Assembly: GCF_000143535.2 (NCBI RefSeq)
Contig: NC_037325.1
Location: forward strand, 124,001 to 188,000
Source: Botrytis cinerea B05.10
Taxonomy: Eukaryota > Ascomycota > Leotiomycetes > Helotiales > Sclerotiniaceae
DNA length: 64,000 bases
Reading direction: 5' to 3'
Part shown: positions 18,347 to 38,944 of the stretch, piece after piece
Layout: every line of letters starts with the position of its first letter
Numbering within the stretch: position 1 is the stretch's first letter
Notes under the pieces: generated by a model
Databases searched by the model: none
What the model saw: only the letters and a program-made list of their open reading frames with translations
Told to the model about the DNA's origin: nothing
Position numbers and translations under genes: made by a program

Positions 18347-18788
18347 TCATTTTGAAGCCTCTGCCACCGAGTCCCCGTTGTTGAAAAATCCCCGCTCTTT
18401 TGCTTCATGACGTCTTGAAGCGCCCACCAAATTGCCATTGTTAAAAAATCCTCGTTTGGTCTTCGAGGAATCTGATGCGTCGTTGTTGTTAAAGAATCCC
18501 CGCTTTTCACTAGATCCTGCATCGTTATTGTTGAAAAATCCTCTCTTTTCTTTTGCAGCAACTGATGAATCTCCATTATTGAAAAATCCCCGTTTCACAT
18601 CTGACCCTGCATCATTGTTATTAAAGAACCCCCGAGGAACACTGGCTTCATGTGCGGCTGTCATATCAGTGAAATATAAATATAGGATAAGCGGTAGACA
18701 TACCCAGTGAGTTGGTTTCAATGATCGGGGCTGCCATGATGGCGATGGCCAGCGCGGCTGATGTAAAACACAAGTATTGGAATTTCAT
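18347..18788 (-). CDS. Secreted kexin-processed repeat peptide precursor (candidate RiPP precursor), 2 exons
   Basis: Exon 1 (18704-18788) and exon 2 (18347-18657) with a 46-bp intron give 131 aa. Residues 1-20 form a signal peptide (MKFQYLCFTSAALAIAIMAA). The rest is six imperfect repeats starting RGFFNN at residues 37, 51, 67, 81, 97 and 117, each followed by N, G or D-containing variants and an acidic/Ser/Ala spacer of 7-15 residues. Four repeats are preceded by Lys-Arg (VKR, EKR, EKR, TKR), the classic Kex2 site; the first has PR and the last KER. Family knowledge: this is the organisation of fungal kexin-processed peptides and dikaritin RiPP precursors such as those of ustiloxin and asperipin. 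The core has Phe-Phe but no Tyr. Two UstYa-type genes follow on the same strand, supporting a modified peptide; an unmodified secreted peptide remains possible. Confidence 0.85.
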
Positions 18789-19917
18789 GATGATGGTGAA
18801 TTGTCGGTGAGATCGTTTTGTATGGGCGGGTGCTCTTTAATAAGTCTGCTTGTTCTAAGATGTTCTTGACCTAGCTGTCTTTTTGATAGTATTGCTTGTT
18901 GGTTAATGAGAAGGGTTTATATAGCAAATGCTTGGAAATATGATCCTCCCACAGCCCATCTATTCCGGTGGTAGTTCATCCCCGTCATCGTTTTCTATTC
19001 TCGTGCCGTCGTAAATGGTGTCAAAAGTCTCATCGGACTGTTTGAATGCTTGAATGAGGGGTATATTTATCACCTCGCACAATATAGAGAGGGGTTATGA
19101 AGGATATCGCAAGAACCAATTTTTCATCATCCAATGACTCGCCATCTAGCGTGCTGTTTGCACTTTCACTTTTCTCATGCTAGAAAAGAAGTCAACTCGC
19201 GTTGTCATTCCTCCGGCATTGCAATACTCAAAGCCATTCATCCCATGGTGCGTTTGTATTTATGAGGAAATTCGCCAAAGAAATCGTGAAATCGGTTTAC
19301 TACCACCACATTCGTCGCGTCTGGGCACGCCGATAATCACACGATAGTCTGGCCGAGTAGGTGATTGTGATCTTTGAAACACGGGTATGAAGCCACTTTC
19401 ACAGCGGTGAGAAAACGGTTATACATATTGTGGTGCGCGAGATGTTGTGTAAATGCAAGTTTGATGTGCATGATGTTGAATTTGGCATTACACAACAGAA
19501 GCGATCATGATTCCCTGGCTTTGTTTTATAGCATCACTTGTTCCCAAAGGAGCTTTCGGATTGTTTTCGGGGAGGAGTTTTTCATTGGAACCTCTTTTAA
19601 ACGTTCGCGGAGAGCATATGTATTTTTTTTTTGAGGGGAGGGCTGGGGGTCGGATATCCGAGGGGTAAAGGAGTTACTGTCAAGAAACGTAACTTTTACT
19701 TGACATTGTATTTACAAATTAAAGACGCTCATTAAATCACTTTTAAGGTGCTGCTAAGATTTAAAATATATCTCACATTGGTGCCATAAGGATTATTGTA
19801 ACGGACGGTTAAGTATCTTCAATCATTGAGAATGGTGATTGAATTCCGTAATGACAGCATCTTGCACTCAAACTCCATGAGAGTGCAAATAACTAGAACA
19901 TCGATAGAATTGGGTAA
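18789..19917. other. Promoter/intergenic region of RiPP-like locus
   Basis: 1.13 kb between the precursor start and the 3' end of UstYa-like gene 1, both on the minus strand. It should hold the precursor promoter. I see no extra gene; a frame at 19374-19634 is not convincing. Confidence 0.5.
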
Positions 19918-20942
19918 TTAATCATCAAAAGACTCAACACTCAACTTCCACAGCTCTTCAGGGTCCTTGCATTGTCTCTCCATCATCCCGTCGACATTTT
20001 CTTTTCCTTTCGAATCAGCTTTTGGTGGCTCCAGTGTTCCATCAGCCGTGCATAGTACTGTCTAGAATTTTGGTGTGAAGTCAGTGCTAAGTTCCTTAGT
20101 GTTTTATAGAAAGAAATTGTATCTTATGACATCCTACTTCGTCCCATCTACTAGCAACTATGCTCTGGCGTTAATACCCGGGTATTTTGTTTGCTAATTA
20201 AAATAACTGAACTCCAGATTTGTCCAAAGTCTCCAAGAAAGTCAAGAATGTGAGTGAGAACTGTACATACCTGTCTCAAATAATCAAAACAATGCAACCA
20301 ATGCAACGGATCCCCATGTTCAATGTGACCAAAATCATGACCATGACCATGGCCGCCTCCCGCTCTCTTTTTCTGCTGTCCCCTTCTCATTTTGCTCTCC
20401 GCCTCCTCATCGTCTTCCATCTTCTCCATCTTCAACTCCTCAACTTCCATCTTCAACTCCTCCATCTCCCTGAATAATTCCTGTACGCCTCCCCTCATAA
20501 TACCCAAACAGTGGAGAGAATGAAACATAGTTATTCCATATCTATGTTTCTTCCCCTTTTGCACTTCTCCTTTCTTTCCTTCCGCATACTCGTTCCCATT
20601 TGACTCCATATTTTCGTCAAAAACCCTCAAAAACCCCCCATTTTGTGGAAGTAATTCATCCCAAAGATGATCATATTCATGGGAAAGATTCTCGTATATT
20701 GGATGCTCAGAAAATAGAACAGTTTTGGAAAGCGGTGATGAGGGATTAAGGGACCCAGAAATAGAAGGTGTGGATGAAGATAATGGGGAGGTATGTGAAT
20801 TAGGTGAAGAGGTGGGAGAGACAAAGGACACAGAGGATATTTGAAGAAAGTATATGATAGTTGTGAGGATGACAATTAGGAATAGAAATGAGATGAGGAG
20901 GGATGAGGATTGTTTCGTCGAGGTGGAGCGGGATGCCAACAT
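19918..20942 (-). CDS. UstYa-family (DUF3328) oxidase-like protein 1, 2 exons
   Basis: Exon 1 20271-20942 and exon 2 19918-20061, with a 209-bp intron starting GTATGT, give about 271 aa. There is one N-terminal membrane helix (LLISFLFLIVILTTIIYFLQ) after a short cytosolic stretch, then a Ser/Pro linker. The luminal domain carries both family His/Cys motifs: FHSLHCLGIMRGG (HxxHC) and, after an unusual charged and His/Gly-rich insert (about residues 160-210), HWLHCFDYLRQ. The last motif continues across the splice site as TVLCTADGTLEP and ends QCKDPEELW. Family knowledge: UstYa proteins are ER/Golgi type II membrane oxidases that cyclise or oxidise precursor-derived peptides in ustiloxin-type pathways. 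Its neighbour is the repeat precursor. Compared with relatives the insert between the motifs is long. Confidence 0.88.
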
Positions 20943-22027
20943 TTTTTTCGACCTCTTCTGTTCTTCTTTGGCTTATATCATCGCGTGTGAATCTCTCTCT
21001 CAAATTTGTGATTAGGCGGAAATTTGAGACAATAATCAGAACTGAGTATTCTATTGTATTTTTGAGTATGTATATCTTTGCAGAAATTCTTCGTCTGCTA
21101 TCAGTAAATATCACCTTCCTATAAAACTCTAGTTCCCGAGTGCCAAGCGATGAATGTCTTGGCACCTGCCCTTCGGGTAAATCGCTGAACTGCCTTTTTC
21201 GGGTGTGTGAGATATGCGAGTGATCCCTACTCGGCATTTGCTTTTAGGACGGTAGTTAGCTGTACGTGTTAGACACTGTAAGATCTTGGAGCTGCGGTGG
21301 ACGAAGTGATATGCACCCCACTATTTGCAGAGCTGGTATCTGAATTGAGATGATTTGCGATGGAGACGATTGAGGCGATGGATCTTTGATATGGAGAAAA
21401 GTTTGCTCGTATCGTGAATTTCAGATTCAAAGTAAATTGTGGGTTGATATTCATGATGCAAGTAAAAATAAACTAAAAGAGTTCGTCGAACATATGGACT
21501 TCGAGCCATAGCAATATATGGGAGCGATTGAAATGGCAATACATTATTCTAAGCTAATTTTATTAAAGTACGATTTATATTATACTTTCGAGATGAAATC
21601 TTTGAGTGAAAGATTAATCAAAGTGTTTGTAGCTTTGTTTAATCGATTTTCGAATTTCTATATAATTATGGCTTTTTGTATTAATTCTAATGAATTAATG
21701 TATTTTGATAATTTGAAGAATCTAGTTCTAATCTATTTTAATCGTTTTTTTATATTCAATCTTATATATATATTATTTGATTTTATATTATATAATTTCT
21801 TTTTAATTTTAATTTTTGTAATATCTATATATAATTCAAAGCTATATTTTTCGAATTTCGTAATATAATCAAACCAATCAGACTTCTCGATTTCTTTGAA
21901 ATTTAATTATATAGAAAATATATATCTATATAGTAAAAGTCATTATTGATTAAATATACAATTATATTTATTATTATTATCTTTAATTTAATAAGGATAG
22001 ATCCCATCTTTTATTTTTTGTTTTGTA
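20943..22027. other. Upstream of UstYa-like gene 1, grading into AT-rich DNA
   Basis: The first about 600 bp are ordinary intergenic sequence (promoter of the gene to the left). From about 21540 to 22027 the DNA becomes overwhelmingly A/T with few C/G, as in RIP-mutated repeats. An open frame at 21518-21868 is a low-complexity Phe/Ile/Asn run and is not a gene. Confidence 0.6.
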
Positions 22028-22585
22028 TGTTACGGGAGCTGCCTCTAGGGTCACGTGGAAGTGTCTAGAGATCTCTCGAGGTGGTTTAGACTAGACTTCA
22101 AGTAGGAATTCAATAAGGTTGTAACTGGTTGCAATTCTCGTAACTATAGTAATGAAACTAATGATTGTTCTTGAGCACGAAGCTCTACATTGTAATGAAA
22201 CCCATTCCCTTATATAGACCTTCGTTCTCGTCTGGATAGCTTGGGTAGACTGTCTATCCTGTCTATCCACGGATAGCCTGGATAGCCTGCCTATCCTGTC
22301 TATCCATCACGTGACACTTGCCCCGTGACCTACATGATACTACTGCTTATCTAACCTGTGCTTACTAGATAACCTATAACCGCTATCCCTCCTGTGCCTA
22401 CTGTAGGGTAGGTGCCAACAAAAGATAGGTACCTATCTTTTAATCATTGCTTATTGATTCGGTTACTGCTATCTTTAGTTACCCTTTAATTCAACTGTCC
22501 CTACAGTGCTGTTTTCGTAGGTTCCAACACCAAGGCCTTAGGTTTATCTTATAATCCATGTTGCGGTGCGGGTACCTCCGTAACA
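22028..22585 (-). repeat. 3' LTR (left copy)
   Basis: 558 bp, TG...CA, with 8-bp inverted ends TGTTACGG/CCGTAACA. It contains several CTATCC-type short internal repeats (consensus GTCTATCC, about 22250-22310) and appears identical to the right LTR. Confidence 0.95.
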
Positions 22586-22612
22586 CTATCCCCTTCCTAG
22601 ACTAGCGCTTGC
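22586..22612 (-). other. Polypurine tract of retrotransposon
   Basis: On the minus strand, AGGAAGGGGATAG lies directly before the 3' LTR, the expected position for priming plus-strand DNA synthesis. Confidence 0.65.
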
Positions 22613-22685
22613 CCCAAGCGTCTATATAGCGGGGTTCCCCCATATCGATTTCTCACTGATTGACTAACTGCTTCTTTCTTTCAAT

Positions 22686-23261
22686 ATGCCAGTTGAGCGT
22701 ACCAAAAAACGAACAGAACAAATATCCCTTGGTCAGCGGATTGAGAGGTTAGGAATCGAAATGGTTGCATGCTCTCGTTGTGAAAAATCCAACAAACGTT
22801 GTGTTGGAATGAAAATTGGTCCTAATGTTGGCCGCTGTGCTGAGTGCTGTAGGCAGGGCAAAACCTGCGATGTGAGAGAGCGAAATCAAATGCCTTCCGT
22901 ATCCGACTGGGAGTCCATTGATCGTCAGCGCCAGCGCCTTCGCGACGAAGAGGAAGAGGCCATGGCTAAAATTCTTCGTTTGCGCAAACAACAACGATTT
23001 CTGGATGAACGGGAAAAGAAAATGATAGCTGCTGGTCTCAGTTCTATGGATGAGCTCGATGCTCTGGAAGAAAAGGAAAAGCTGGAAAAAGAGCGTGTGG
23101 ACAAAGAAACCGCAGATGTCGCTGCGCCCGTTCCTAGTGGTTCCCCCTCCTTCGACTTCTTCGGTTCTTCGTTACCTCCGTTGTCTGATGCCGAGCTTGA
23201 GGCTTTGCTGGCAGATGTGGGTACTTCAGGTGGAATGCCTGTAGTTTCTCAGGGCAGCTGA
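22686..23261 (+). CDS. Antisense ORF in the retrotransposon with a Zn2Cys6-type cysteine cluster
   Basis: A 191-aa frame with its own ATG runs opposite to gag-pol and overlaps the last 128 bp of the gag-pol frame. After a basic N-terminus (ERTKKRTEQ), six cysteines at residues 29, 32, 39, 51, 54 and 61 follow CX2CX6CX11CX2CX6C, the full spacing of the fungal binuclear zinc cluster, starting CSRCEKSNKRC. A charged coiled-coil-like stretch (about 75-145, Glu/Lys/Arg/Gln-rich) and an acidic tail (LSDAELEALLADVG) follow, the usual layout of a DNA-binding plus activation region. It would be transcribed away from the left LTR. I recall that Botrytis LTR elements carry an extra gene called brtn; whether this is that gene I cannot verify. 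Role unknown. Confidence 0.7.
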   Translation: MPVERTKKRTEQISLGQRIERLGIEMVACSRCEKSNKRCVGMKIGPNVGRCAECCRQGKTCDVRERNQMPSVSDWESIDRQRQRLRDEEEEAMAKILRLRKQQRFLDEREKKMIAAGLSSMDELDALEEKEKLEKERVDKETADVAAPVPSGSPSFDFFGSSLPPLSDAELEALLADVGTSGGMPVVSQGS

Positions 23262-26200
23262 GATCCTTCTTGAGTTCCCATGTGTTTTCCGAATGTGGGT
23301 AGTCTAACCATTTGATCAAATACTTGATTTTGCCCCTGACATATTTACAATCTAGTATTGTTTCAACGTCGTATATGGCGTTTGGGTTGACTGGTTCGAT
23401 TTCTGTAAATGGCGCATTTGGCGCTCCTGGTGGTGCTGGTTCGAGCAAGGATATGTGGAATACTGGGTGGATATTCATTGTGTCTGGTAATTTCAATCGA
23501 TAATTAACCGTTCCTATTACCTTATCAATCTTGAATGGTCCTATTTTCCTGTGGTCGAGTTTATTGCTTGGTCTCTTGGTTTCGATGTTTCGTTGTAGCA
23601 AATAAACTTTATCCCCCTCTTTAAGCGTAGGTTCCATACTACGTTTCGTATTGTAGTACGCTGCTGTTCTGGAAGATATGAATCTTAGATCAAGAGCCAG
23701 TTGCTCTTGGAGATCTTTCAGCTGTTCGACTTGTACTATTGCTGATTCGGCATTAACTTCTTGTGGTATCGGGATTTTATACGCTTGTGGATTAAACCCA
23801 AAATTAGCTCGTGCTGGGGTGATTTTCGTGGTTTCCGTTTCCGATGTATTGTATGCGAACTGTGCCATGGGTAATAGCTCTACCCAATTGTCTTGTCGAT
23901 AATTTACATAGCATCTAAGATATGCTTCCATTGTCTGATTGGTCCTCTCTGTTTGACCATCTGTTTGTGGGTGGAAAGATGTCGATAGCTTTCTCTTGAT
24001 ACCCATAAGTGCTAATAAGGTAGTCCAGAATTTCGAGGTAAAGAGCTTGTCTCGATCCGAGATTATCTCATCTGGTACTCCGTGTATGCTTACTATGACC
24101 CTTAGGAACACATATGCTAGTTGCTCAGCATCCCATGTTTCCTTGAATGGTATCATATATGCAAATTTCGTTAGCCTGTCTACTATATTGAGTATCGCGT
24201 CGTACTCAATTCCTGTAGTAGGATCCTTTGAGAGTGGTAGTTTGACCACAAAGTCCCATGTGATGGACTTCCATGGCTGAGAAGGCATGTCTGGGGTCTG
24301 GAGCTGACCATACGGCGCATGTCGTGATGACTTGTTTCGTATGCAGGTGTCACAATTTCCAACAACTTCTTCAACTATCGTTCTCATTCGTGGGAAGTAA
24401 CTGATTTCCCGGATTCTTGCAAATGTTCTTGCAATCCCTTGATGTCCGTGTGCCGGCAACCCATGTTGTTCCGTCACAAATTCCTTGGTCATTTGACTCG
24501 GAATGTATACTTTTCCATGAAAGTATATGGTATCATCTTCTATAGTGAATCCTGGTTCTATTGTCTTGCGTATGCGTGTGGCAGTAGCATCCTTGTTGTA
24601 GTGTGATTGGATCTGTTTCCTGAGGTGGTTGTCTTCCAACAGGTGTGTTGCTGCAAGCTGTGGTGCATTGTAGACCAGTGATTCGCCGTCTTTCTTGAAT
24701 ATAGCGTATGACTCGTACGTTTTGTTTTCTTGATATTCTGGTTTTCGGCTAAGAGCGTCGGCTCTAGCGTTTTCTGATCCTTTGACATATGAAATTCTGA
24801 AATTGTAGTTGGCCATGGTCTCCGACCATCTGACCTGTCGTCTGTTTAACTGCTTCGTTGTGGTGAAGTAAACCAAGTTCTTATGATCTGTATACACCTG
24901 TACTGTGTATTTCGATCCTTCCAAATATACTCGCCATTCTCTAAATGCATCGACTATTGCCAGTAATTCTTTGTCATATATCTCGTAATTTAACTCAGCT
25001 GGTGATAGTTTTCGGGAGTAGAATGCGATTGGCTGGTATTTTCCATTCTGGCCCGGTTGGCTCAGAACTGCTCCTATAGCGAAATCTGAGGAATCCGTTT
25101 CCACTATGATTTCTTTCTCTGGGTCAAAAGTCAACAGTATTGGTTCTTCTGCCACTGCTTGTTTGAGTGTATCGAATGACTCCTGTGCTTTGGCAGTCCA
25201 TTCGAAGCTTCCTTGATCTTTTCTGGTTAACGTGGTCAAGGGTGTAGTAATCCCTGAATAACCCTTGATAAATCTTCTATAGAAGTTGACAAATCCTAGA
25301 AAGGATTGTACTTCCTTGATTGTGGTCGGCTGCTTCCATTCGAGCACTGCCTTAACCTTGTCTTTGCTCATCTTGAGCCCTTGGCTTGATACGGTGAATC
25401 CCAAGAATTCTGTTTCTGTGACATGGAATTCGCATTTGCTTGGTTTGCACAGCAAGTCTGCTTTGGATAGACTTTCGAGGATGTTGCTAACGTCCTTAAT
25501 GTGTTGAACCTTGTTGTTTGAATATACTAGGATGTCGTCCAAGTAGCATATACAGCAAGTATCCAAATATTGTGACAACACATTGTTCATAAGCCTCATG
25601 AAAGTAGCTGGTGCGTTGGTTAGCCCGAATGGCATAACTTGGTACTCGTATAGCCCGTATCTTGTTTTGAAAGCGGTTTTCCATTCTTCGCCTTCCTTCA
25701 TTCTGATCAAGTGGTAACCATTACGTAGGTCCATCTTGGTGAATATCGTAGCTCCGCCTAATCGATCTCTTAATTCCGTAGCTAATGGAAGTGGATATCG
25801 ATCCTTCTTAGTGAGTGCGTTAAGCTTTCTATAGTCTACAACTAGTCTATCGGGTCCATCCTTCTTGGGTACCCACATAGTTGGACTGGCCACTTGGGAC
25901 GCGGATTCCCTGATCCATCCCTTGGCTAAATTGTCGTCGATGTATTCTCTGAGCCTTTTTAACTCATCGGCTGACATTGAATAAATTGGGGTGTGCACAG
26001 GCATCTTGCCTTCCTCCAATATTATCTCATGATCCCATGGCTTGTGTTCCGGTAAAGCCTCATGGATCCCTGGTTCTTTGAAAACATGTTCATATTTCTT
26101 GTACTGTTCTGGTATCGTAGGCCTTTCTTTTGCCTCGATTGCGATTTCGTGCCGTGTCGTTGGCTTCTGCATTTGTAGAGGAGGTGTACTGGCCTTCGCT

Positions 26201-27990
26201 CTTAATGGAGGACCCTGGACTGGGTGTCCTACGTCGCCGGTGTTGTTCGCGTTCAACTCCCCTTGGCGCGTGTTACGTCTCGCGGACGCCTCTAGCGTGT
26301 CCCTGTGACCGCTTTTGCACTGATCAAATGTCACAATTCCTTGTGCCCAATCTATTTTCGGATTATGTGCCTTCAACCATGGCATTCCTAAGATGATCTG
26401 TTGTTGGCCCAATGGCACAACGTCAAGCTGTATAACCTCTGTATGTTGGGTTATGCCCATTCGTACTGGGATTGTCTCCTGCGAAATCTTTCCGTCAGAC
26501 CCTGCTAGCTGTCCGTCAACTAACTGCAATCGGTAGGGATGTTGTTTCGTTTGAAGTGGTATTTCCAAGTACTTTGCAGCTTCTGGTGCAATAAAATTTC
26601 CTGTAGCCCCTGAATCTATCATGGCTGATTGTATGTGTCCATTTATCTGGACCTTGCAGTACACTTGTCCTGCCTGTCCCGTAGCATTCAACTGCTGGGT
26701 AACTTTGCGAACTTCTTGCGAAGTTATATTGGGAGTTAAATCCTCGCATGTTACATTATTCTGATGGTTCTTCGTCTTCCTTTTCTTGGGGAACCATCCG
26801 GTTGCTTCTTTATCTGATCGATGGATTCCGCAGAATTCATCATAGCAAGCTGTCCAGCTCATCGTGGCGTGGTCCGCTTCTGCCTCGTCCTGGTGACTTT
26901 CTTCTGTCACAGAGGGTGTTGGGGTTCTGTAATACTCTTGTTCCCATAAGTCTATTGCATTCATGCCCTCTTTATTTCGTGGTAATTCCTTTAGTAATTG
27001 CTGAAATTCCTCAACGGTGAAAGTCTCAGTATTTTCGGTTTTAGTTGAGTTTTCTGAGATGGCAAAGGTGGCGTTAAGTTGGCCCTTGCCGAACTTAGGT
27101 TTGAAGTTGCCCCTTTTTCCTCCTGTCTTCTTGCTTCGGCAGTCTACTGCTCGGTGCCCTGCTTTTCCACATTCAAAGCATAAGTTGTTTTCTCGTCTTC
27201 GTCTCTTTTCTGAGTCATCGTTCCCGTTTGTGTAGTGCGTGGCGTCTAGTTCCATGGGGTCTCCGTATCTCTGTGGATTGTAACGTGGTCTACCCTCATT
27301 CTTGCGGTAACGCCCTTGCTTTTGGTTTCCTTGGGGTTTGTATGATCTTTGGCTTTGTCGATATCTATAGAGACGATCATCTGATTCGATGGAGTCCTGA
27401 ATTAGATCGTTCAGATCTGTACTCTCGGCAGATCTTTCTAACTCTAGTCTGACTTCTGGTTTGAGTCCCTTACGGTAGTGACTCATGATAGCGATTTCGT
27501 CCCACTTGGTTGTTCCAGCATATCTTCGAAATTCCGTAGCATATTTCAATGCTGATCCTGTCTGCTTGAGGTTGAAGATCTTATCTTCCGCTACCTCTAA
27601 CTCGTTGGAATTTCCGAAGATTCTACGAATCTCTGTCTTAAATCCTTCAAAACTATTGAAGATTGTTCGGGTGGGTTGCATGCGATCCTTATCGTCATGC
27701 TCGAAATAGTCGCGCAAATATGGTTGAATCCATTTGGTTGCTTCACCTCGGAGGTATGATGCAGCCCATATGCTCTTGGATTCCTTGGTAGTGAACTTGT
27801 CTTCATTGAATCGGAAGTAGATCTCAAGTTGTAAGAGGAAAGTATCGAGCTCTTGTCGACTACCTTGGTACTTGTCTGGTAAGGCGATCTTAAGTGTTTC
27901 GTTGATAGTGATCTCCTTTGGGGCATCGGTCATCTCGATGTCGTTGGTATCTCCGGTAGACTGACCTGTGGCGGTGGCTCTGGATGCCAT
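23134..27990 (-). CDS. Gag-Pol polyprotein of Ty3/gypsy chromovirus
   Basis: One uninterrupted frame of 1618 codons. In order: Gag (about 30-260, with YLRGEATKWIQPYL); CCHC zinc knuckle CFECGKAGHRAVDC (about 270-284); aspartic protease with DSGATGNFI (about 460); reverse transcriptase with CICYLDDILVYS (about 818); RNase H (TDSSDFAIGAVL, about 965); integrase with an HHCC zinc finger (HGHQG to CDTCIRNKSS, up to about 1217) and catalytic triad in TWDFVV, ISDRDKLF and GQTERTNQ (about 1245, 1310, 1346); C-terminal chromodomain (YDVETILDCKY, YLIKWLDYPHSENTWE, about 1535-1590). Gag and Pol are fused without frameshift, as in the Tf1/sushi group. All catalytic motifs are present, so the element is potentially autonomous. 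The chromodomain probably directs integration to heterochromatin, consistent with the AT-rich surroundings. Confidence 0.97.
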   Translation of the reverse strand: MASRATATGQSTGDTNDIEMTDAPKEITINETLKIALPDKYQGSRQELDTFLLQLEIYFRFNEDKFTTKESKSIWAASYLRGEATKWIQPYLRDYFEHDDKDRMQPTRTIFNSFEGFKTEIRRIFGNSNELEVAEDKIFNLKQTGSALKYATEFRRYAGTTKWDEIAIMSHYRKGLKPEVRLELERSAESTDLNDLIQDSIESDDRLYRYRQSQRSYKPQGNQKQGRYRKNEGRPRYNPQRYGDPMELDATHYTNGNDDSEKRRRRENNLCFECGKAGHRAVDCRSKKTGGKRGNFKPKFGKGQLNATFAISENSTKTENTETFTVEEFQQLLKELPRNKEGMNAIDLWEQEYYRTPTPSVTEESHQDEAEADHATMSWTACYDEFCGIHRSDKEATGWFPKKRKTKNHQNNVTCEDLTPNITSQEVRKVTQQLNATGQAGQVYCKVQINGHIQSAMIDSGATGNFIAPEAAKYLEIPLQTKQHPYRLQLVDGQLAGSDGKISQETIPVRMGITQHTEVIQLDVVPLGQQQIILGMPWLKAHNPKIDWAQGIVTFDQCKSGHRDTLEASARRNTRQGELNANNTGDVGHPVQGPPLRAKASTPPLQMQKPTTRHEIAIEAKERPTIPEQYKKYEHVFKEPGIHEALPEHKPWDHEIILEEGKMPVHTPIYSMSADELKRLREYIDDNLAKGWIRESASQVASPTMWVPKKDGPDRLVVDYRKLNALTKKDRYPLPLATELRDRLGGATIFTKMDLRNGYHLIRMKEGEEWKTAFKTRYGLYEYQVMPFGLTNAPATFMRLMNNVLSQYLDTCCICYLDDILVYSNNKVQHIKDVSNILESLSKADLLCKPSKCEFHVTETEFLGFTVSSQGLKMSKDKVKAVLEWKQPTTIKEVQSFLGFVNFYRRFIKGYSGITTPLTTLTRKDQGSFEWTAKAQESFDTLKQAVAEEPILLTFDPEKEIIVETDSSDFAIGAVLSQPGQNGKYQPIAFYSRKLSPAELNYEIYDKELLAIVDAFREWRVYLEGSKYTVQVYTDHKNLVYFTTTKQLNRRQVRWSETMANYNFRISYVKGSENARADALSRKPEYQENKTYESYAIFKKDGESLVYNAPQLAATHLLEDNHLRKQIQSHYNKDATATRIRKTIEPGFTIEDDTIYFHGKVYIPSQMTKEFVTEQHGLPAHGHQGIARTFARIREISYFPRMRTIVEEVVGNCDTCIRNKSSRHAPYGQLQTPDMPSQPWKSITWDFVVKLPLSKDPTTGIEYDAILNIVDRLTKFAYMIPFKETWDAEQLAYVFLRVIVSIHGVPDEIISDRDKLFTSKFWTTLLALMGIKRKLSTSFHPQTDGQTERTNQTMEAYLRCYVNYRQDNWVELLPMAQFAYNTSETETTKITPARANFGFNPQAYKIPIPQEVNAESAIVQVEQLKDLQEQLALDLRFISSRTAAYYNTKRSMEPTLKEGDKVYLLQRNIETKRPSNKLDHRKIGPFKIDKVIGTVNYRLKLPDTMNIHPVFHISLLEPAPPGAPNAPFTEIEPVNPNAIYDVETILDCKYVRGKIKYLIKWLDYPHSENTWELKKDLSCPEKLQAFHLKYPHLPAKPQARHQTTEVTKNRRSRRRGNH

Positions 27991-28016
27991 ATTAGCGGTT
28001 GGTTATCGAATCGGTA

Positions 28017-28041
28017 CTTGAAGCAGAAATGGTGCTCAAAG
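28017..28041 (-). other. Putative primer-binding site, self-priming type
   Basis: Directly inside the 5' LTR the minus strand reads CTTTGAGCACCATTTC. It does not begin with TGG as tRNA-primed sites do. Instead its CTTTGAGCAC can pair with GTGCTCAAGA inside the LTR (plus 28182-28191 as the complement), about 30-40 nt downstream of a TATATAAG box, i.e. near the expected RNA 5' end. That is the Tf1-style self-priming arrangement. Confidence 0.5.
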
Positions 28042-28599
28042 TGTTACGGGAGCTGCCTCTAGGGTCACGTGGAAGTGTCTAGAGATCTCTCGAGGTGGTT
28101 TAGACTAGACTTCAAGTAGGAATTCAATAAGGTTGTAACTGGTTGCAATTCTCGTAACTATAGTAATGAAACTAATGATTGTTCTTGAGCACGAAGCTCT
28201 ACATTGTAATGAAACCCATTCCCTTATATAGACCTTCGTTCTCGTCTGGATAGCTTGGGTAGACTGTCTATCCTGTCTATCCACGGATAGCCTGGATAGC
28301 CTGCCTATCCTGTCTATCCATCACGTGACACTTGCCCCGTGACCTACATGATACTACTGCTTATCTAACCTGTGCTTACTAGATAACCTATAACCGCTAT
28401 CCCTCCTGTGCCTACTGTAGGGTAGGTGCCAACAAAAGATAGGTACCTATCTTTTAATCATTGCTTATTGATTCGGTTACTGCTATCTTTAGTTACCCTT
28501 TAATTCAACTGTCCCTACAGTGCTGTTTTCGTAGGTTCCAACACCAAGGCCTTAGGTTTATCTTATAATCCATGTTGCGGTGCGGGTACCTCCGTAACA
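28042..28599 (-). repeat. 5' LTR (right copy)
   Basis: 558 bp, the same ends as the left LTR and no difference found on reading both through. A TATATAAG sequence on the minus strand (about 28222-28231) is a plausible promoter for gag-pol RNA. Confidence 0.95.
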
Positions 28600-28604
28600 T
28601 TGTA

Positions 28605-30674
28605 TTATATATTTCATTTATTAATAAATATTGTATAGGGTTGAAGAAAAGAATAAGTTAGAAATAGTGGTAATATTTAGAAAGCTTTTTTTTTTAATCT
28701 TTTTATATCTTTTCAATTTGTATATTATGTATAATAATATATATGATAATCTGTTTAATAATTCTAATAAAAGAATATTTAGGGTTAATGGTTTTAATAA
28801 GCTTAATTCAATATTTCAAAATTTGATATTATAATTTATTTGAATTAATTAAAAAGTATTATGAAAGTAAATATAAATAGATATATATATAATTAGTTTA
28901 TATTTCGAATTAATTGAGTTAATATTAATAAATATAATTTCATTTCGAATTCGAATTGATTAATTTTATTACTTTATTTATTGAATTTAATATATTTATT
29001 TTAATTTTATAATTATATAAAGTTTTCATTATATAAGTTTTTATTTTAGAATAGTTTAGTTTTTGTATTAAATCTTATATATAATGAATTTTATATAAAA
29101 GGTGAATCACTTATTAATTATTAATTTAAATTTTATTAAAAAGAAAGGAAAAACTTATTTCTATTTTTTTAATATTTAAGTTTTGAAAAGCTAAATAAAA
29201 AGTTTTTTGTTTTATTAATGAATTATTATTTAAAATATATTGGAATTTTTAAAGGGTTTTATTCCGAATATACTATTATTTGATTATTAATAGAAATTCA
29301 GTAATCAATTTTTTAAATTTATTAAATAATAATATATAAATTATAAGAAATTATATACTTATAAAATTGTATATTATTAAAATGAATAATTTCTAATTTA
29401 ATTGATTAATCTTATATATTGAATTAATTAGAATTAAATATTTGAAATATTCAATATTATTTAAATAAATAGAATCGGTAAAAACAAGGTTTAATTCATA
29501 ATTATTATTTATATTAATTATAATAATATATTATTGAATTTATTTGATTTGATTAATAGTTATTAAAATGTTATATATTTATAATATAATATTATTTTTA
29601 ATAATTAAATCAATAAATAAAATATTTGGATTCTTCTCTTTTTAAAATAATCTATAATTAATAATATCTTGGTATATAAAAAAGATTCTATTTATAAAAT
29701 GAAGAATTAAATCAAAACTTACAAATTCAATCCTTTTATTCCTAATAACCCGAAGAATCTATATCGATCGATATCCTTTTATAATATTAACTTTTATTAA
29801 TCTAATTAAATAAAAGTAATATTTATTAATATTATATATATAATTAATCGATTTCCTTATAAAATGAAATTCAAAATAATTAATATATTCTAAAATCTTA
29901 AAAACTATATTGTATATAAATTCAAATCTTTTTCAATACTTAATTATAAAATTAAAGCTTTAATTTATCAATTTTGTATAATATTGTGAGAGTGAAAACA
30001 CGTGACTTCAGGGTCACGTGCTGCCAACGTTTAGTATTTATAGCTTCTCTTCTGTAGACCTAAAAATATCATCGAATTTTCCACCTTCAAAAGTTGTCTC
30101 CTGAAGAACTGAGTGCCCAACTCTTACCGTCTCCCTCGCCTCGCTGCCGCGATGTAGCGATTCACCCCATTTTACTACGTGTAGCCACTTGCTCTATGCT
30201 TGGTATATGCGAAGGCTTTCTTGTGTGACCATTACCACCTTCTACTCTTTTACAATATTTGAATCAATAGATTATATAATATAATATTATATTATTATAT
30301 ATTTTTTATTATATTCAATTTAAATAAATATTATTAATTATTAATTAAAGGAAATCATATTCAAAATAATTAAATCAAAAAGGAAAATAATTTAAATCAA
30401 AAAGATATTTTCTTTGAATTGAAATATTATATAATAGAAAAGATAAGTGATTCATTTTAATTTAAAGAAAAAGAAAATATTGATTTCGAAGCTTTATAAA
30501 GAAAAGTAAAGCTTTAAATAAGCCTTATAAAACCCCTATAGAATAAATGTATATACATAAAAACGAAGATTATGAGTTATCAAATTGAACTACCTAATAA
30601 GGTTAAGCTCCCATTAATGTGTTGCCATTTCAATCGCTCCCCAATATATGACCCATCGTCGCCTCCCAAACCGC
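28605..30674. other. AT-rich, RIP-like block with a GC-richer island
   Basis: Almost pure A/T from 28605 to 29984 and from 30254 to about 30570, dominated by TAATTA/TATATA strings with very few C or G. It continues the block at 21540-22027, into which the retrotransposon inserted. Frames here are Ile/Asn/Phe-rich noise. The island at 29985-30253 is listed separately. From 30570 sequence becomes normal and leads into the 3' end of UstYa-like gene 2. Confidence 0.75.
29985..30253. mobile_element. GC-richer insert, possible solo LTR or small element
   Basis: 269 bp of normal composition inside AT-only DNA, starting TGTGAGAGTG and ending CTACTCTTTTAC(A), with loosely inverted ends and AATAT on both sides (29980-29984 and 30254-30258). 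It contains two CACGTG boxes near the start. The TG...CA-like ends and flanking duplication suggest a solo LTR; in AT-rich DNA the duplication could be chance. Confidence 0.35.
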
Positions 30675-31646
30675 TTACGCAATCCCCGAACTATTTACCG
30701 GACTCCTATGCTCTCCCATCCACTTCAAAACTTGTTCCCAATCTCTACACTTATGAGTGATACCCCACCCATCAACTGTAAACGGAGGGTTTCCATCCGG
30801 CATCTCCATTGCCCATTCGATAGTCATGTCTGCAGAACACATCATTGCTTGTCGTAAATAATCGAAACAGTGGGATGTATGTTCTTTTTCCGATTCTTGG
30901 GCCGCTGAGTCTGAGAGATTTTCGTCACCGTGGATGTGCGGACGAACTCCCATAAGCACCGAGTTGTATGATTCGCGGATCATGCCCTGAGGGTGTTAGC
31001 TGGTGGCTTGGGTGAATTAGAGAGCGAAGAGAAAGAGATATTACCAGACAATGGAGTTGGTGGAATACAGAAACCGAATATCGATCTGGTCCATTTGCTG
31101 ATGGTAATCCTGGTCGAAGCCCATATTTTTCAGAGTTTTCGACAAGAATGAAACCTCGTCCAGCTGGTGATGTTTAATCAGCTATTGTTGGAGATACATC
31201 GACCGGAAAGCTTCTGAGAGTACACTTTACCTGGCATTAAATTATCCCATGCTGAATCTGTTTCTGGACTGGAAGCAGCTGCATATCTTTCGTCTTCTTC
31301 AAACATGACTGGGAGTGATGGAACTGCTCATTATGAGTACGTGATATCTAAAGCCACCGTAATCTTTGCAAGAGAAAACAGTTGTCCCCAACGTACAATC
31401 TGGAGGAAATGTATGTGGTACACTCCAATTAGAAATGTATGAAAATGTGGCATAGATAACCAGAATTATAGATAATCCGCTCAGAAGCCCCACAATTACT
31501 CCATATACAAACTTTCGTCGTAAAGCAGCCGCATCGCCATCTCGTAGGTATGGTTCTTCGACATTCTCTATCTTCGGATTCAAAAGTGAATGGTATGGCA
31601 AAGAAGTTCTGCTATTGCTAGACTCGTATGAGTGAACTTCAGGCAT
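30675..31646 (-). CDS. UstYa-family (DUF3328) oxidase-like protein 2, 4 exons
   Basis: Exons 31397-31646, 31231-31323, 31045-31163 and 30675-30986 join in frame to about 257 aa. After about 55 hydrophilic residues comes one membrane helix (YGVIVGLLSGLSIILVIYAT). The luminal domain follows: MFEEDERYAAASSPETDSAW (family F..D.RY..PS.E.D.AW), AGRGFILVENSEKYGLRPG, SVFHQLHCLGMIRESY with the first HxxHC, HTSHCFDYLRQAMMCSADMT with the second, TIEWA, then GWGITHKCRDWEQV near the C-terminus. This is a textbook complete UstYa protein; two His/Cys motifs are thought to bind the metal for peptide cyclisation. It lies on the same strand as the precursor and UstYa-like gene 1, separated from them by AT-rich DNA and the retrotransposon. 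Confidence 0.93.
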
Positions 31647-35455: not shown

Positions 35456-36320
35456 GCTAAACGAGAATGAAGGGGTAGTCTAATAACGTAATCAATCTTG
35501 TAATTGACCTCTAGTTTTATCAAGGAAAATTAAATGAGTTTGAGTAGAAGTGGAAGTAGTAGAATCCTGGTTGACAATCGATCGACTGTTCTTACTTACA
35601 CATCATTTATTTTTCCGCACAAAGTTACATATAATTGATAAATACATAACACGATGCACATGACGTTTAGATGATAGAGCACCTTGGAGAATATAGCAAC
35701 TAAAAACTTCATCCGCTGTCATTGATGCCTCTCTGGTGTCCCCTCCTTCACAAAACTTTATATTCATAATATTACCAAAAAAGGAACAAACTCGATACCA
35801 AGAGATCGGTTGCAATACTAAAATTAACTACAGTCCTAGGGGATCAACTTATTATAGTGATCACTGTTAAACTAAGTTGACACTTTTTTTTTTGAGTCTA
35901 AGGTCCTAAGGCTTTGGCTGGCTTTGTCATGTCAGATCATCTAGTTTCAAACTCCACTGCTTATGCTTATGCTTATGCTTATGTCAATCCAGCCTCTACG
36001 TAACCGAAATAAGCGGCGGAAATTGAGTACCTTATTCTACGTATAATTTAGGTGGTGGGCACGGTACTCAATTTCCGCCGCTTATTTCGGTTACATAGAG
36101 CCAGCTTATACACTAGCACCTAGTATTACTCACCTTTCCGCACGTTTAGTCTATTAAGGTACTCTAATATGACAGACTCCCAGGTTTGTTACTCTATCCG
36201 GCACGACTTCTGTGACTTCCACGCCCAGCTTTTCTCTTTTCAAATCGCCATCTGCACTCACTCTGTTCCTTCTGATACCAGATACTCTCTGTCGCTACTG
36301 TTCTGTTTCGGGTTGCGATT
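35456..36320. other. Intergenic with microsatellite and hairpin, upstream of SDR
   Basis: Contains a GCTTAT x4 repeat at 35959-35982 and the long hairpin described separately. The part from about 36110 is the promoter/leader of the following gene. Confidence 0.55.
35994..36100. repeat. 38-bp inverted repeat (hairpin) with 31-bp spacer
   Basis: Arm 1 is 35994-36031 and arm 2 is 36063-36100. They are reverse complements except for one C/T difference at the sixth base. The arm core is CGAAATAAGCGGCGGAAATT. It lies about 220 bp before the ATG of the SDR gene. It could be a tiny MITE or a regulatory/cruciform structure. Confidence 0.85.
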
Positions 36321-37172
36321 ATGGCCTCACTCCGTGTTCTGATTTTTGGTGGAAATGGTGGCATTGGCCAACTGATCGTTGACTCGATGCTTACAAGATC
36401 CTGGCACGTTACTAGTGTCATCAGAGATTCGAGACAAAAAGCAGACGCTCTTCGGTTAGGGCCAAAAAAAGGTCCCAAAGCCGACATCCTCGTTTGTGAT
36501 CTAGCACGGATGAAGGATGAAGACGCCAGTAAGATCCTCACGCAAGTCAAGCCCAACTATGTTGTGTTCGCAGCAGGTAAGAAATCTTGTGATTATGCTA
36601 CAAATTATTTTACTAAGCTACTTTATTGTTCACCAGGGAGCATGACCAATGTTAATGCCGTTGATCGAGATGCAGCGAAAAAGATTATCAAGGCAGCAGT
36701 TAGTACTCTCGAAGTTACAAAATTCCTCATGATATCATTTCCTGCCTCGCGCCGAAAGAAGGCGCCTTGGTGGGACAACACTGATTACCAAGCTTTTCTC
36801 GACGAGACAAGAGCATATCCAGAGATAGCGGAGGCTAAGCTGAACGCTGATGAGTACCTGGTGGCCATGGCCAAGCAGAGGAATGATGAGAGCCCGGATT
36901 CTTTTCAAGCAATTAGCTTACGACCCAGCTGGCTTTCCAACGCTCCTAGTGGTAGAGTTCATTTGGGCAAAACCAAATTTTCAGGACGGGTATCGCGTGC
37001 CGATGTTGCTGCCGTAGCTGTCAGTCTTCTTTCACGAAGTGATGCTTCAGGCTGGTTTGATCTCGTGGATGGCAGTGATGATGTTGAATCCGCTGTGAAT
37101 AATGCGGTACAAAACAACTTAAATTCTATCCATGGGGAGGATCTTGAGCAGATGTATTGTAAAGTAAGATAG
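36321..37172 (+). CDS. NAD(P)-binding atypical SDR (NmrA/YwnB-like), 2 exons
   Basis: Exons 36321-36576 and 36637-37172 give about 263 aa; the 60-bp intron (GTAAGA...CACCAG) has no stop and could be misread as coding. The N-terminus has the dinucleotide motif VLIFGGNGGIGQLIV (GxxGxxG), then SVIRDSRQK, DILVCDLARM and NYVVFAAG, the Rossmann pattern of atypical short-chain reductases. Later blocks are FLMISFPASRRK, KLNADEYLVA, ISLRPSWLSNAP and SRADVAAVAVSLL. There is no strict YxxxK; the KLNADEY segment is the atypical counterpart. Relatives act as NAD(P)H sensors or reductases. Substrate unknown. Confidence 0.82.
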   Translation: MASLRVLIFGGNGGIGQLIVDSMLTRSWHVTSVIRDSRQKADALRLGPKKGPKADILVCDLARMKDEDASKILTQVKPNYVVFAAGKKSCDYATNYFTKLLYCSPGSMTNVNAVDRDAAKKIIKAAVSTLEVTKFLMISFPASRRKKAPWWDNTDYQAFLDETRAYPEIAEAKLNADEYLVAMAKQRNDESPDSFQAISLRPSWLSNAPSGRVHLGKTKFSGRVSRADVAAVAVSLLSRSDASGWFDLVDGSDDVESAVNNAVQNNLNSIHGEDLEQMYCKVR

Positions 37173-37822
37173 AGCCGAGCTAACTTGGGTCGGACGGAGT
37201 GGTCCTTGAACTATTTGCAAAACAGCCTTATCGAGTCTTTACTTCCGGCCATATCTTAGCGACACCACTCGCTTTGAAGTGACCTCTAGATTCTAGGAAT
37301 GTTCCCTTCTATTCGATTCTATGACTCGCCACCACTTTATAATTCCGAACTGGGGCGGGAATATCTACGGATCTAAAACAATGAAAACTTTCACCACATA
37401 GAAGAATTATATGGGCAACACCACCTGATACTAAGTAATTCAACCAAATCTAAACCCCTGATCAGTCCAGAGCGATAATCAATACCACAAGTACTCTATC
37501 GGATAAGAATTTTACTTTCTAGCTGAGAATTTAGCACCGGGGATTGGCACATGTGCATCGACCGGTATTGGAGTCTATCATTACGTTCTTAATTTCCTTC
37601 ATAACATTTTCTGTATACAAAAAAAAAAAACGAAATAGCTCAATCGAGAAGTATCTACCTCAGATTTATCATATTGTGTTTTTGAGTTTATTAAAATCAT
37701 TCTTGCATCCAAGAACAGCTCAATTTGCCAGCAGATTACAAAAATGCATATATGCCAAATCAGGCCGCTTATGTCCCTCTTGAAGAGCTTGCGATGCCAC
37801 CCATGAAACACATATAAAGCTA
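37173..37822. other. Convergent intergenic region
   Basis: 650 bp between the 3' ends of the SDR and the bZIP gene. A poly-A run at about 37619-37630 is the only notable feature. Confidence 0.5.
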
Positions 37823-38944
37823 TCAGATCAAAATTTTATCAAAGTGTAGAGCTATTTGACCACGACCTGCCCTCCACTTATTTGTAGACTCAAATAAATC
37901 CCAACATCCCTTGATCGTCCATCCCCAACGCTCCAAGAATCCCTCAGTTACTTCCCAGCCAGCCACATCCCACGGCTCTCCCCAGATAATCATACCTGTT
38001 CTCCCAGTGCCAGCACTGAAAATTCCAACTAGGTCTCCACAAAGTTTCATTACATCAAATATGTCTCCGGCTCGGATCAGATTCTGCCGCATCTGAGGCA
38101 CAGGCAAGCAATCGATCCAAGGATGATGGGGAATCTGAATTTGAAGATCTGTGGGCCGCAAGGATGGCGGCAATGCAAGGATACCGTTTATATCCGCAGA
38201 CAGTGGACAAAATGTAGATGTTGCATCGTCATCCGTGATGACGTCAGATGGGATTCCAAGTGTCATGGAATTGCTAATAAAAGCTCTGAACACATTGACT
38301 TTGACTAAAACTAGAAGTTTGTCGTTCCTCGGAGATCCAATCGTAGAAGTATTTTGTGCCCATTTTTGCAACCACGTCATAATTGTAAAATCATCTAGGT
38401 TTCCTCGTGCGCATGCGACAGCTGTTCGAGAACGCTCGCAAATTTTGATTTGAGAAAGACCTGCAGCTGAATTGAAGACATCAAGTAGATCGGCCTCTTG
38501 CCACTGAGTTACGTCCGAGGGCGACTGGGGAAATTTACACTCTGTAGTTCTTACCGTCAGCGAGCTATTCTCTACTGAGCCACTCTCTACCGAGCTACTA
38601 GAGTCAAACAAGCTAGTTTTCGTGGGTGCAAGCTTTCGCCCGGAGGAACTGTTCGACTCAAAAATTGCATGTTGCACCATGCGAAACTGTGATCGCTGAA
38701 GCTTCTTTCTTCTCCCTGCAAATTAGAGACGCACACATTATCAGTAATTTATTGTGGAATACGAGGACTTTTGCCAAGAGCAAAGCGAGTACTCACGCCA
38801 AGCTCTCTGATGGACTCGATTTTGTGCCTTTCTTCGCTCAGCTGCACTAGACAAGCCAGAGCAAACATACTCTATTTCTCTGCTTGTATCTTGTTGTATC
38901 GTATACTGCAGGGCAATCTGAGCGGCGCATGGTGACTTGGCCAT
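37823..38944 (-). CDS. bZIP-type transcription factor with DUF3425 domain, 2 exons
   Basis: Exon 1 38797-38944 and exon 2 37823-38715 join to about 346 aa. The splice lies inside the basic region and restores AERRKAQNRVHQRAWRRRKK, matching the fungal RRxQNRxAQRAYRxRK pattern, followed by a weak leucine-zipper region. The C-terminal half has the DUF3425 pattern: VNVFRAFISNSMTLGIP, CPLSADINGILALPPSLRPT, IPHHPWIDCLPVPQMRQNLI, and near the end MIIWGEPWDVAGWEVTEGFL. Family knowledge: these fungal-specific factors commonly regulate secondary metabolism, stress or nutrient genes. Its neighbours are four oxidoreductase genes, which it might control; that is inference. Confidence 0.9.

What the first reader, a model, noticed from the sequence alone, without database searches (positions are those of the whole stretch)
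18347..31646. Candidate fungal RiPP cluster: repeat precursor plus two UstYa-family genes, interrupted by a retrotransposon
A secreted precursor with six GFFNN-type repeats at basic processing sites sits on the same strand as two complete DUF3328 genes, each with both HxxHC motifs. This trio is the diagnostic core of dikaritin-type pathways (ustiloxin, asperipin). No tyrosinase, methyltransferase or transporter typical of larger clusters is visible in between. The repeat core differs from those I know, so the product, if made, is probably undescribed.
Basis: partly seen in the sequence, partly recalled or inferred. Interest (0 to 1): 0.88.

Follow-up and report, generated by a model that had tools for sequence, protein, structure and literature searches.

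The report
Unannotated repeat-peptide cluster in grey mould
A grey-mould fungus carries a small gene group that looks built to make short modified peptides; the peptide gene has relatives in several Botrytis species, but this copy stops early and lacks the conserved tyrosine-rich end that those relatives have.

Summary
On the minus strand lie a two-exon gene for a 131-aa precursor with six GFFNN repeats at basic sites, and two complete UstYa (DUF3328) genes, each with two HxxHC motifs. A recent LTR retrotransposon and AT-rich DNA separate the UstYa genes. The genome fits Botrytis cinerea. The precursor search gave seven relatives, six from named Botrytis species. In B. sinoallii the precursor is next to UstYa1 by locus tag; UstYa1 and UstYa2 are neighbours in Sclerotinia nivalis. 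GFFNN codons differ among repeats only synonymously (39 to 0). Best reading: a dikaritin-type RiPP locus (Kex2-processed repeat protein plus UstYa). The repeats hold no tyrosine, the residue used in the best-known UstYa products. And 7 of 7 relatives carry a conserved tyrosine-rich C-terminal segment (GYYYTYTDS) that is missing here because the frame ends just before it. A product here, if any, would be phenylalanine-based. Three of 13 other UstYa loci examined in this genome also have repeat precursors, with tyrosine. A new member of a known kind with a testable twist; no product was shown.

The parts
18704..18788 (-). precursor exon 1: hydrophobic, signal-peptide-like N terminus
   Evidence: gene model; hydropathy; similar start in 5 of 7 relatives
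18658..18703 (-). precursor intron, 46 bp, GTATGT...ACAG
   Evidence: spliced protein agrees with relatives
18347..18657 (-). precursor exon 2 with six GFFNN repeats (repeat part about 18350-18631) and the stop codon
18296..18346 (-). stretch after the stop that, taken by itself, resembles the conserved tyrosine-rich C-terminal segment of the relatives; not part of the reading frame of the gene in this genome
   Evidence: piece translated on its own; relatives
20271..20942 (-). UstYa1 exon 1 (membrane helix, HSLHC, HWLHC)
19918..20061 (-). UstYa1 exon 2
   Evidence: 271 aa as in P0008
31397..31646 (-). UstYa2 exon 1 (membrane helix)
   Evidence: boundary agrees with P0037
31231..31323 (-). UstYa2 exon 2
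31045..31163 (-). UstYa2 exon 3 (HQLHC)
30675..30986 (-). UstYa2 exon 4 (HTSHC)
22028..28599 (-). LTR retrotransposon between the UstYa genes: identical 558-bp LTRs (22028-22585, 28042-28599), target duplication TTGTA at 22023-22027 and 28600-28604; the 1622-aa frame 23134-28002 is read as gag-pol by eye, not scanned
21500..22027 (.). AT-rich flank, GC 0.195, TA/AT 0.87
28600..30500 (.). AT-rich flank, GC 0.17, TA/AT 0.94 (mutated-repeat-like)

Best explanation
This is a minimal UstYa-linked (dikaritin-type) RiPP locus. The precursor enters the secretory pathway. Kex2 cuts after the basic pairs and frees peptides that begin GFFNN. The two membrane-anchored UstYa oxidases, which have paired HxxHC motifs (the family is reported to use a dicopper site), oxidise or crosslink the core, most likely through its phenylalanines. 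Acidic linkers are trimmed away. Relatives in Botrytis also carry a tyrosine-rich C-terminal segment, which is a second candidate substrate or a guide for the enzymes; this genome's copy ends before it. Shown: anatomy, intact enzyme motifs, selection on GFFNN, relatives in six named Botrytis species, the missing segment. Inferred: secretion, Kex2 cutting, crosslinking, the residue used, the product. My split: locus class about 0.85; GFFNN as the modified core about 0.5. The rivals below overlap with the class claim.
For: Six GFFNN repeats with only synonymous differences. Precursor ATG lies 1,129 bp from the UstYa1 stop, same strand; by my rough arithmetic from the 24 UstYa loci a random spot falls that near one about 0.2% of the time. 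Precursor and UstYa1 are consecutive genes in B. sinoallii (EAF02_001157/001158, contigs of equal length). UstYa1 and UstYa2 are consecutive in Sclerotinia nivalis (OCU04_007992/007991, contigs of equal length). Two HxxHC motifs are present in 28 of 29 UstYa1 relatives and 62 of 68 UstYa2 relatives. The best of five UstYa2 models (of P0037; pLDDT 80.5, the other four 69-73) puts the motifs on two helices, 146-166 and 180-205, behind a long helix 36-74. Three other UstYa loci of the same genome have repeat precursors with a signal-like segment before the repeats. UstYs are said to use a dicopper site and to join Tyr to Phe in asperipin-2a (PMC12186524, passages). Victorin is said to be cyclised through a Phe side chain (PMC9233826, passages).
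Against: No product, transcript or assay. [quoted passage not shown] Two of six repeats follow PR or ER, which I recall as poor Kex2 sites. This copy lacks a segment kept in 7 of 7 relatives. UstYa enzymes also act outside RiPP pathways (PMC12048977, passages). Linkage of precursor and UstYa1 was readable in 1 of 7 relatives. No protein named B. cinerea appeared among the 7 precursor hits, and no Sclerotinia one, although UstYa1 and UstYa2 are there.
Confidence: 0.7

Rival explanations
1. The tyrosine-rich C-terminal segment is the true UstYa substrate in Botrytis; the GFFNN peptides are linear co-products or spacers. In this genome the segment is not translated, so the enzymes have lost their substrate and the locus is beginning to decay.
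For: GYYYTYTDS is invariant in 7 of 7 relatives, against 31 of 34 exact GFFNN units. All Tyr of the relatives lie in that segment, except one in P0003. The three best-known Tyr-linked products need Tyr (PMC7329392). The frame ends before it here, and a transposon sits in the locus.
Against: Repeated units are described as holding the cores (PMC10512285, passages). Both UstYa genes are full length; UstYa1 is 99% identical to another B. cinerea sequence. The six GFFNN are unspoilt. P0004 has no Lys-Arg before the segment, so it would not be freed by Kex2 there.
Confidence: 0.25
2. The precursor yields unmodified secreted repeat peptides (signals or surface peptides) and the UstYa genes are there for another purpose.
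For: About 78% of Kex2-processed repeat proteins have no DUF3328 gene within 15 genes (PMC7329392, passages). Repeats lack Tyr.
Against: Adjacency to UstYa1 in a second species and paired UstYa genes in a second genus. Same layout at three other UstYa loci of this genome.
Confidence: 0.12
3. The locus is a non-functional remnant in this genome.
For: C-terminal shortening and a recent retrotransposon between the UstYa genes.
Against: Intact frames, splice sites and motifs in both enzymes and perfect GFFNN units; the insertion is outside the genes.
Confidence: 0.15

Closest known systems
asperipin-2a cluster (Aspergillus flavus)
   Same: Small cluster; repeat precursor with UstYa-type oxidase; aromatic core. 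Tyr-O to Phe-C-beta link reported (PMC12186524, passages).
   Different: Its core has tyrosines; the repeats here have only Phe. The sequence of its precursor was not compared. Its heterologous production used four genes (PMC10512285, passages).
ustiloxin and phomopsin clusters
   Same: Precursor with Kex2-separated repeats and UstYa homologues (PMC9233826, PMC10512285, passages).
   Different: Tyr-Ile linked cores; the ustiloxin cluster has 15 genes, and no tyrosinase or methyltransferase was seen here in the ORFs scanned.
victorin cluster (Cochliobolus victoriae)
   Same: Multi-core precursor; cyclisation described as through a Phe side chain (PMC9233826, passages), the precedent for a Tyr-free core.
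   Different: Different core and more modifications; the original paper is not held.
DUF3328-linked Kex2-processed repeat proteins (Umemura 2020)
   Same: Same class: 22.3% of 7,878 such proteins lie near DUF3328 genes; the Y content rate of their repeats is given as 65.6%, so Tyr-free ones exist.
   Different: The letters GFFN do not occur in the main text; its supplementary tables were not open to me.
Three other UstYa-linked repeat precursors of the same genome (L012, L014, L024)
   Same: Signal-like segment, then repeats at basic sites, UstYa exons within about 1-3 kb.
   Different: Their repeats contain Tyr.

Membership tests
dikaritin (Kex2-processed repeat precursor cyclised by UstYa homologues) | secreted precursor with N-terminal signal | tested here: inconclusive
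   hydrophobic stretch, mean Kyte-Doolittle 2.37 over residues 11-22; no signal-peptide predictor at hand
dikaritin (Kex2-processed repeat precursor cyclised by UstYa homologues) | several near-identical repeats separated by Kex2-type sites | tested here: met
   six GFFNN; four KR, one PR, one ER before them
dikaritin (Kex2-processed repeat precursor cyclised by UstYa homologues) | linked UstYa (DUF3328) gene with two HxxHC motifs | tested here: met
   two genes, both with two motifs
dikaritin (Kex2-processed repeat precursor cyclised by UstYa homologues) | linkage kept in relatives | tested here: inconclusive
   seen in 1 of 7 precursor relatives (B. sinoallii); the other 6 could not be read from the listings
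dikaritin (Kex2-processed repeat precursor cyclised by UstYa homologues) | crosslinked cyclic product | not testable with these tools
   needs mass spectrometry
Tyr-linked subgroup (ustiloxin, phomopsin, asperipin-2a) | tyrosine in the repeated core | tested here: not met
   the only Tyr of this precursor is residue 5, in the signal-like part. In relatives Tyr lies in the C-terminal segment, one in a linker of P0003
fungal alpha-pheromone-type repeat precursor | match to a pheromone family; no linked DUF3328 | tested here: not met
   no Pfam match for the precursor at E up to 0.1; UstYa genes linked

The most novel reading that the evidence does not exclude
Botrytis has a two-part RiPP precursor: one transcript supplies several Phe-Phe GFFNN cores and one Tyr-rich C-terminal core or guide, handled by two different UstYa enzymes. 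The genome in the window is a natural variant that keeps the Phe cores and both enzymes but not the Tyr part, so UstYa chemistry on a Tyr-free core could be seen in nature.
Probability: 0.2. Interest if true: 0.72.

Novelty: new member of a known kind. Interest (0 to 1): 0.5.

Why it matters
Only five dikaritins had been reported by 2022 (PMC10512285, passages), although the gene class is widespread. This one lies in a much studied fungus, no protein named B. cinerea was among the precursor hits, and it poses a clear question: can UstYa oxidases work on a core without tyrosine, and what is a conserved Tyr-rich segment for if one genome can lack it while keeping the enzymes?

Tried and rejected
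Pheromone precursor: rejected, no family match and UstYa genes linked. Chance repeat: rejected. The repeat scan of 321,413 bases (26 fetched stretches plus the window) gave hits at four loci only: L012, L014, L024 and the window; one of the two L014 hits is another frame of the same repeats. Five first-order resamplings of the same bases gave 0 hits. Reversed sequences gave 3 hits, all in the three fetched loci that hold true repeats, so reversal is not a clean control there. The looser threshold gave many further hits, mostly runs of basic residues, which I dropped.

Literature: six papers hold the letters GFFNN; by title none is about fungal peptides (listing only). Twelve papers hold both botrytis and ustya (listing only). 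Searches showed no paper on this locus in their listings, which were capped. Passages of PMC6339444 name neither Botrytis nor GFFN. Supplementary tables of PMC7329392 were not open to me, so the type may be listed there. The species name is inferred: genome of 42.63 Mb in 18 contigs and UstYa1 99% identical to a B. cinerea protein. That this size fits strain B05.10 is recalled.

Sclerotinia precursor: none among the 7 hits. With the three protein searches used, a diverged one could not be sought.
Full report
What is there. The window is bases 124001-188000 of contig 16 of a 42.63-Mb genome in 18 contigs. On the minus strand lie a precursor gene (18788-18347), UstYa1 (20942-19918) and UstYa2 (31646-30675). 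To the left is a COX15 gene. To the right are two ORFs without a Pfam match (32621 and 33231). The next recognised frames are an NAD-binding protein at 36276 and a DUF3425 protein at 37823. No tyrosinase or methyltransferase domain turned up in the 20 ORFs scanned, out of 41 listed with 130 aa or more.

The precursor. Exon 1 encodes a hydrophobic start. A 46-bp intron follows, then six units that begin GFFNN. Units are preceded by PR, KR, KR, KR, KR and ER. Among the six, GFFNN codons differ 39 times synonymously and never otherwise, against 42:228 possible single changes, while the five codons after each core differ mostly nonsynonymously (51 to 14 differing codon pairs). Selection has held GFFNN and let the linkers drift, which is what a repeated core with spacers should look like.

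Relatives. The database search gave seven proteins among 144 candidates: B. deweyae, B. calthae (as Botryotinia), B. hyacinthi, B. paeoniae, B. sinoallii, B. byssoidea and one unnamed. They carry 3 to 6 units, 34 in all, 31 of them exactly GFFNN. All seven continue past the last unit into a segment such as RDEEVDDDGYYYTYTDSNK, with GYYYTYTDS invariant; six of seven have Lys-Arg before it, P0004 does not. The window's frame ends before this segment; the DNA after the stop, translated by itself, still resembles it. So the gene is C-terminally shortened here and intact copies exist in other species. The only tyrosine of the window's precursor is residue 5; in the relatives four conserved tyrosines sit in the C-terminal segment, and P0003 has one more in a linker.

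The enzymes. Both UstYa genes are complete, with GT-AG introns and two HxxHC motifs. Among database relatives 28 of 29 (UstYa1) and 62 of 68 (UstYa2) hold at least two HxxHC. A model of the B. elliptica UstYa2, 95% identical, has a long N-terminal helix followed by two helices that bear the motifs (best of five models pLDDT 80.5, others 69-73). UstY enzymes are reported to use a dicopper site (PMC12186524, passages), and the paired motif is suspected to be part of the active site (PMC12048977, passages).

Linkage. Consecutive locus tags put precursor and UstYa1 side by side in B. sinoallii, and UstYa1 and UstYa2 side by side in Sclerotinia nivalis. This is linkage for one of seven precursor relatives; the others cannot be judged from the listings, since proteins are clustered at 90% identity. 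In the window the two UstYa genes are 9,732 bp apart, of which 6,577 bp is the transposon with one target copy.

The transposon. Its LTRs are 558 bp and identical, flanked by TTGTA on both sides. In the genome seven full-length LTR pairs 6,014-6,015 bp apart were listed, six of them with both LTRs 100% identical to the query (40 of 173 candidates scored, so a lower bound). It sits in AT-rich DNA of GC 0.17-0.20. TA/AT is 0.94 on the right, above the 0.89 that PMC8365987 takes as a sign of repeat-induced mutation (passages), and 0.87 on the left, below it; the element itself has GC 0.446. It breaks no gene seen here.

The same genome as yardstick. One search listed 44 UstYa matches, which I grouped by hand into 24 loci. 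I could fetch 13 of the 23 others. Three have repeat precursors: contig 7 near 406.5 kb (SYVNS units), contig 15 near 682 kb (FYAVQ units), contig 16 near 1142 kb (IIQYKDY units). In each, a signal-like segment precedes the repeats (not fully modelled). All three have tyrosine in the repeat. The GFFNN gene is the odd one out.

How it may work. Described for the class: repeat precursor, Kex2 cutting, UstYa oxidation. [quoted passage not shown] Yet the Y content rate of repeats in DUF3328-linked precursors is given as only 65.6%, and victorin is described as closed through a phenylalanine (PMC9233826, passages). I therefore favour modification of the GFFNN core at phenylalanine (about 0.5). The chief rival is that the C-terminal segment is the substrate in relatives and that this genome has lost it (about 0.25).

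Novelty. A member of a known and widespread class, with a core that no listing or passage I saw describes, and with a two-part precursor that is shortened in this genome. The supplementary tables of PMC7329392, which may list it, were not open to me.

Noticed in passing
L012 3411-3818 (+), G000 contig 7 about 406.5 kb: Repeat precursor with ELSYVNSKREA-type units about 2-3 kb from the strongest UstYa match of the genome.
   Followed up: partly
L014 1486-2073 (-), G000 contig 15 about 682 kb: Repeat precursor with FYAVQ(K/R)-type units about 1 kb from UstYa exons, same strand.
   Followed up: partly
L024 4401-4895 (+), G000 contig 16 about 1142 kb: Repeat precursor with FVPTIIQYKDYTEDASDDKAKR-type units about 2.6 kb from UstYa exons.
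   Followed up: partly
window 22028-28599: Retrotransposon with identical LTRs and GC 0.446, one of at least six in this genome with LTRs 100% identical to the query; a 197-aa frame without a Pfam match lies antisense to the long frame at 22668-23261. The title of a reference seen names an antisense gene in Boty-like elements.
   Followed up: partly
window 19918-20942: UstYa1 has a long charged insert between its two HxxHC motifs, with a His-rich end; Sclerotinia relatives have a similar insert with a shorter His part.
   Followed up: no
window 36276-38722: NAD-binding protein and DUF3425 protein 4.6-7 kb beyond UstYa2; whether they belong to the cluster was not tested.
   Followed up: no
P0006: The B. 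byssoidea relative bears the database label RxLR effector protein, not supported by anything seen here.
   Followed up: no
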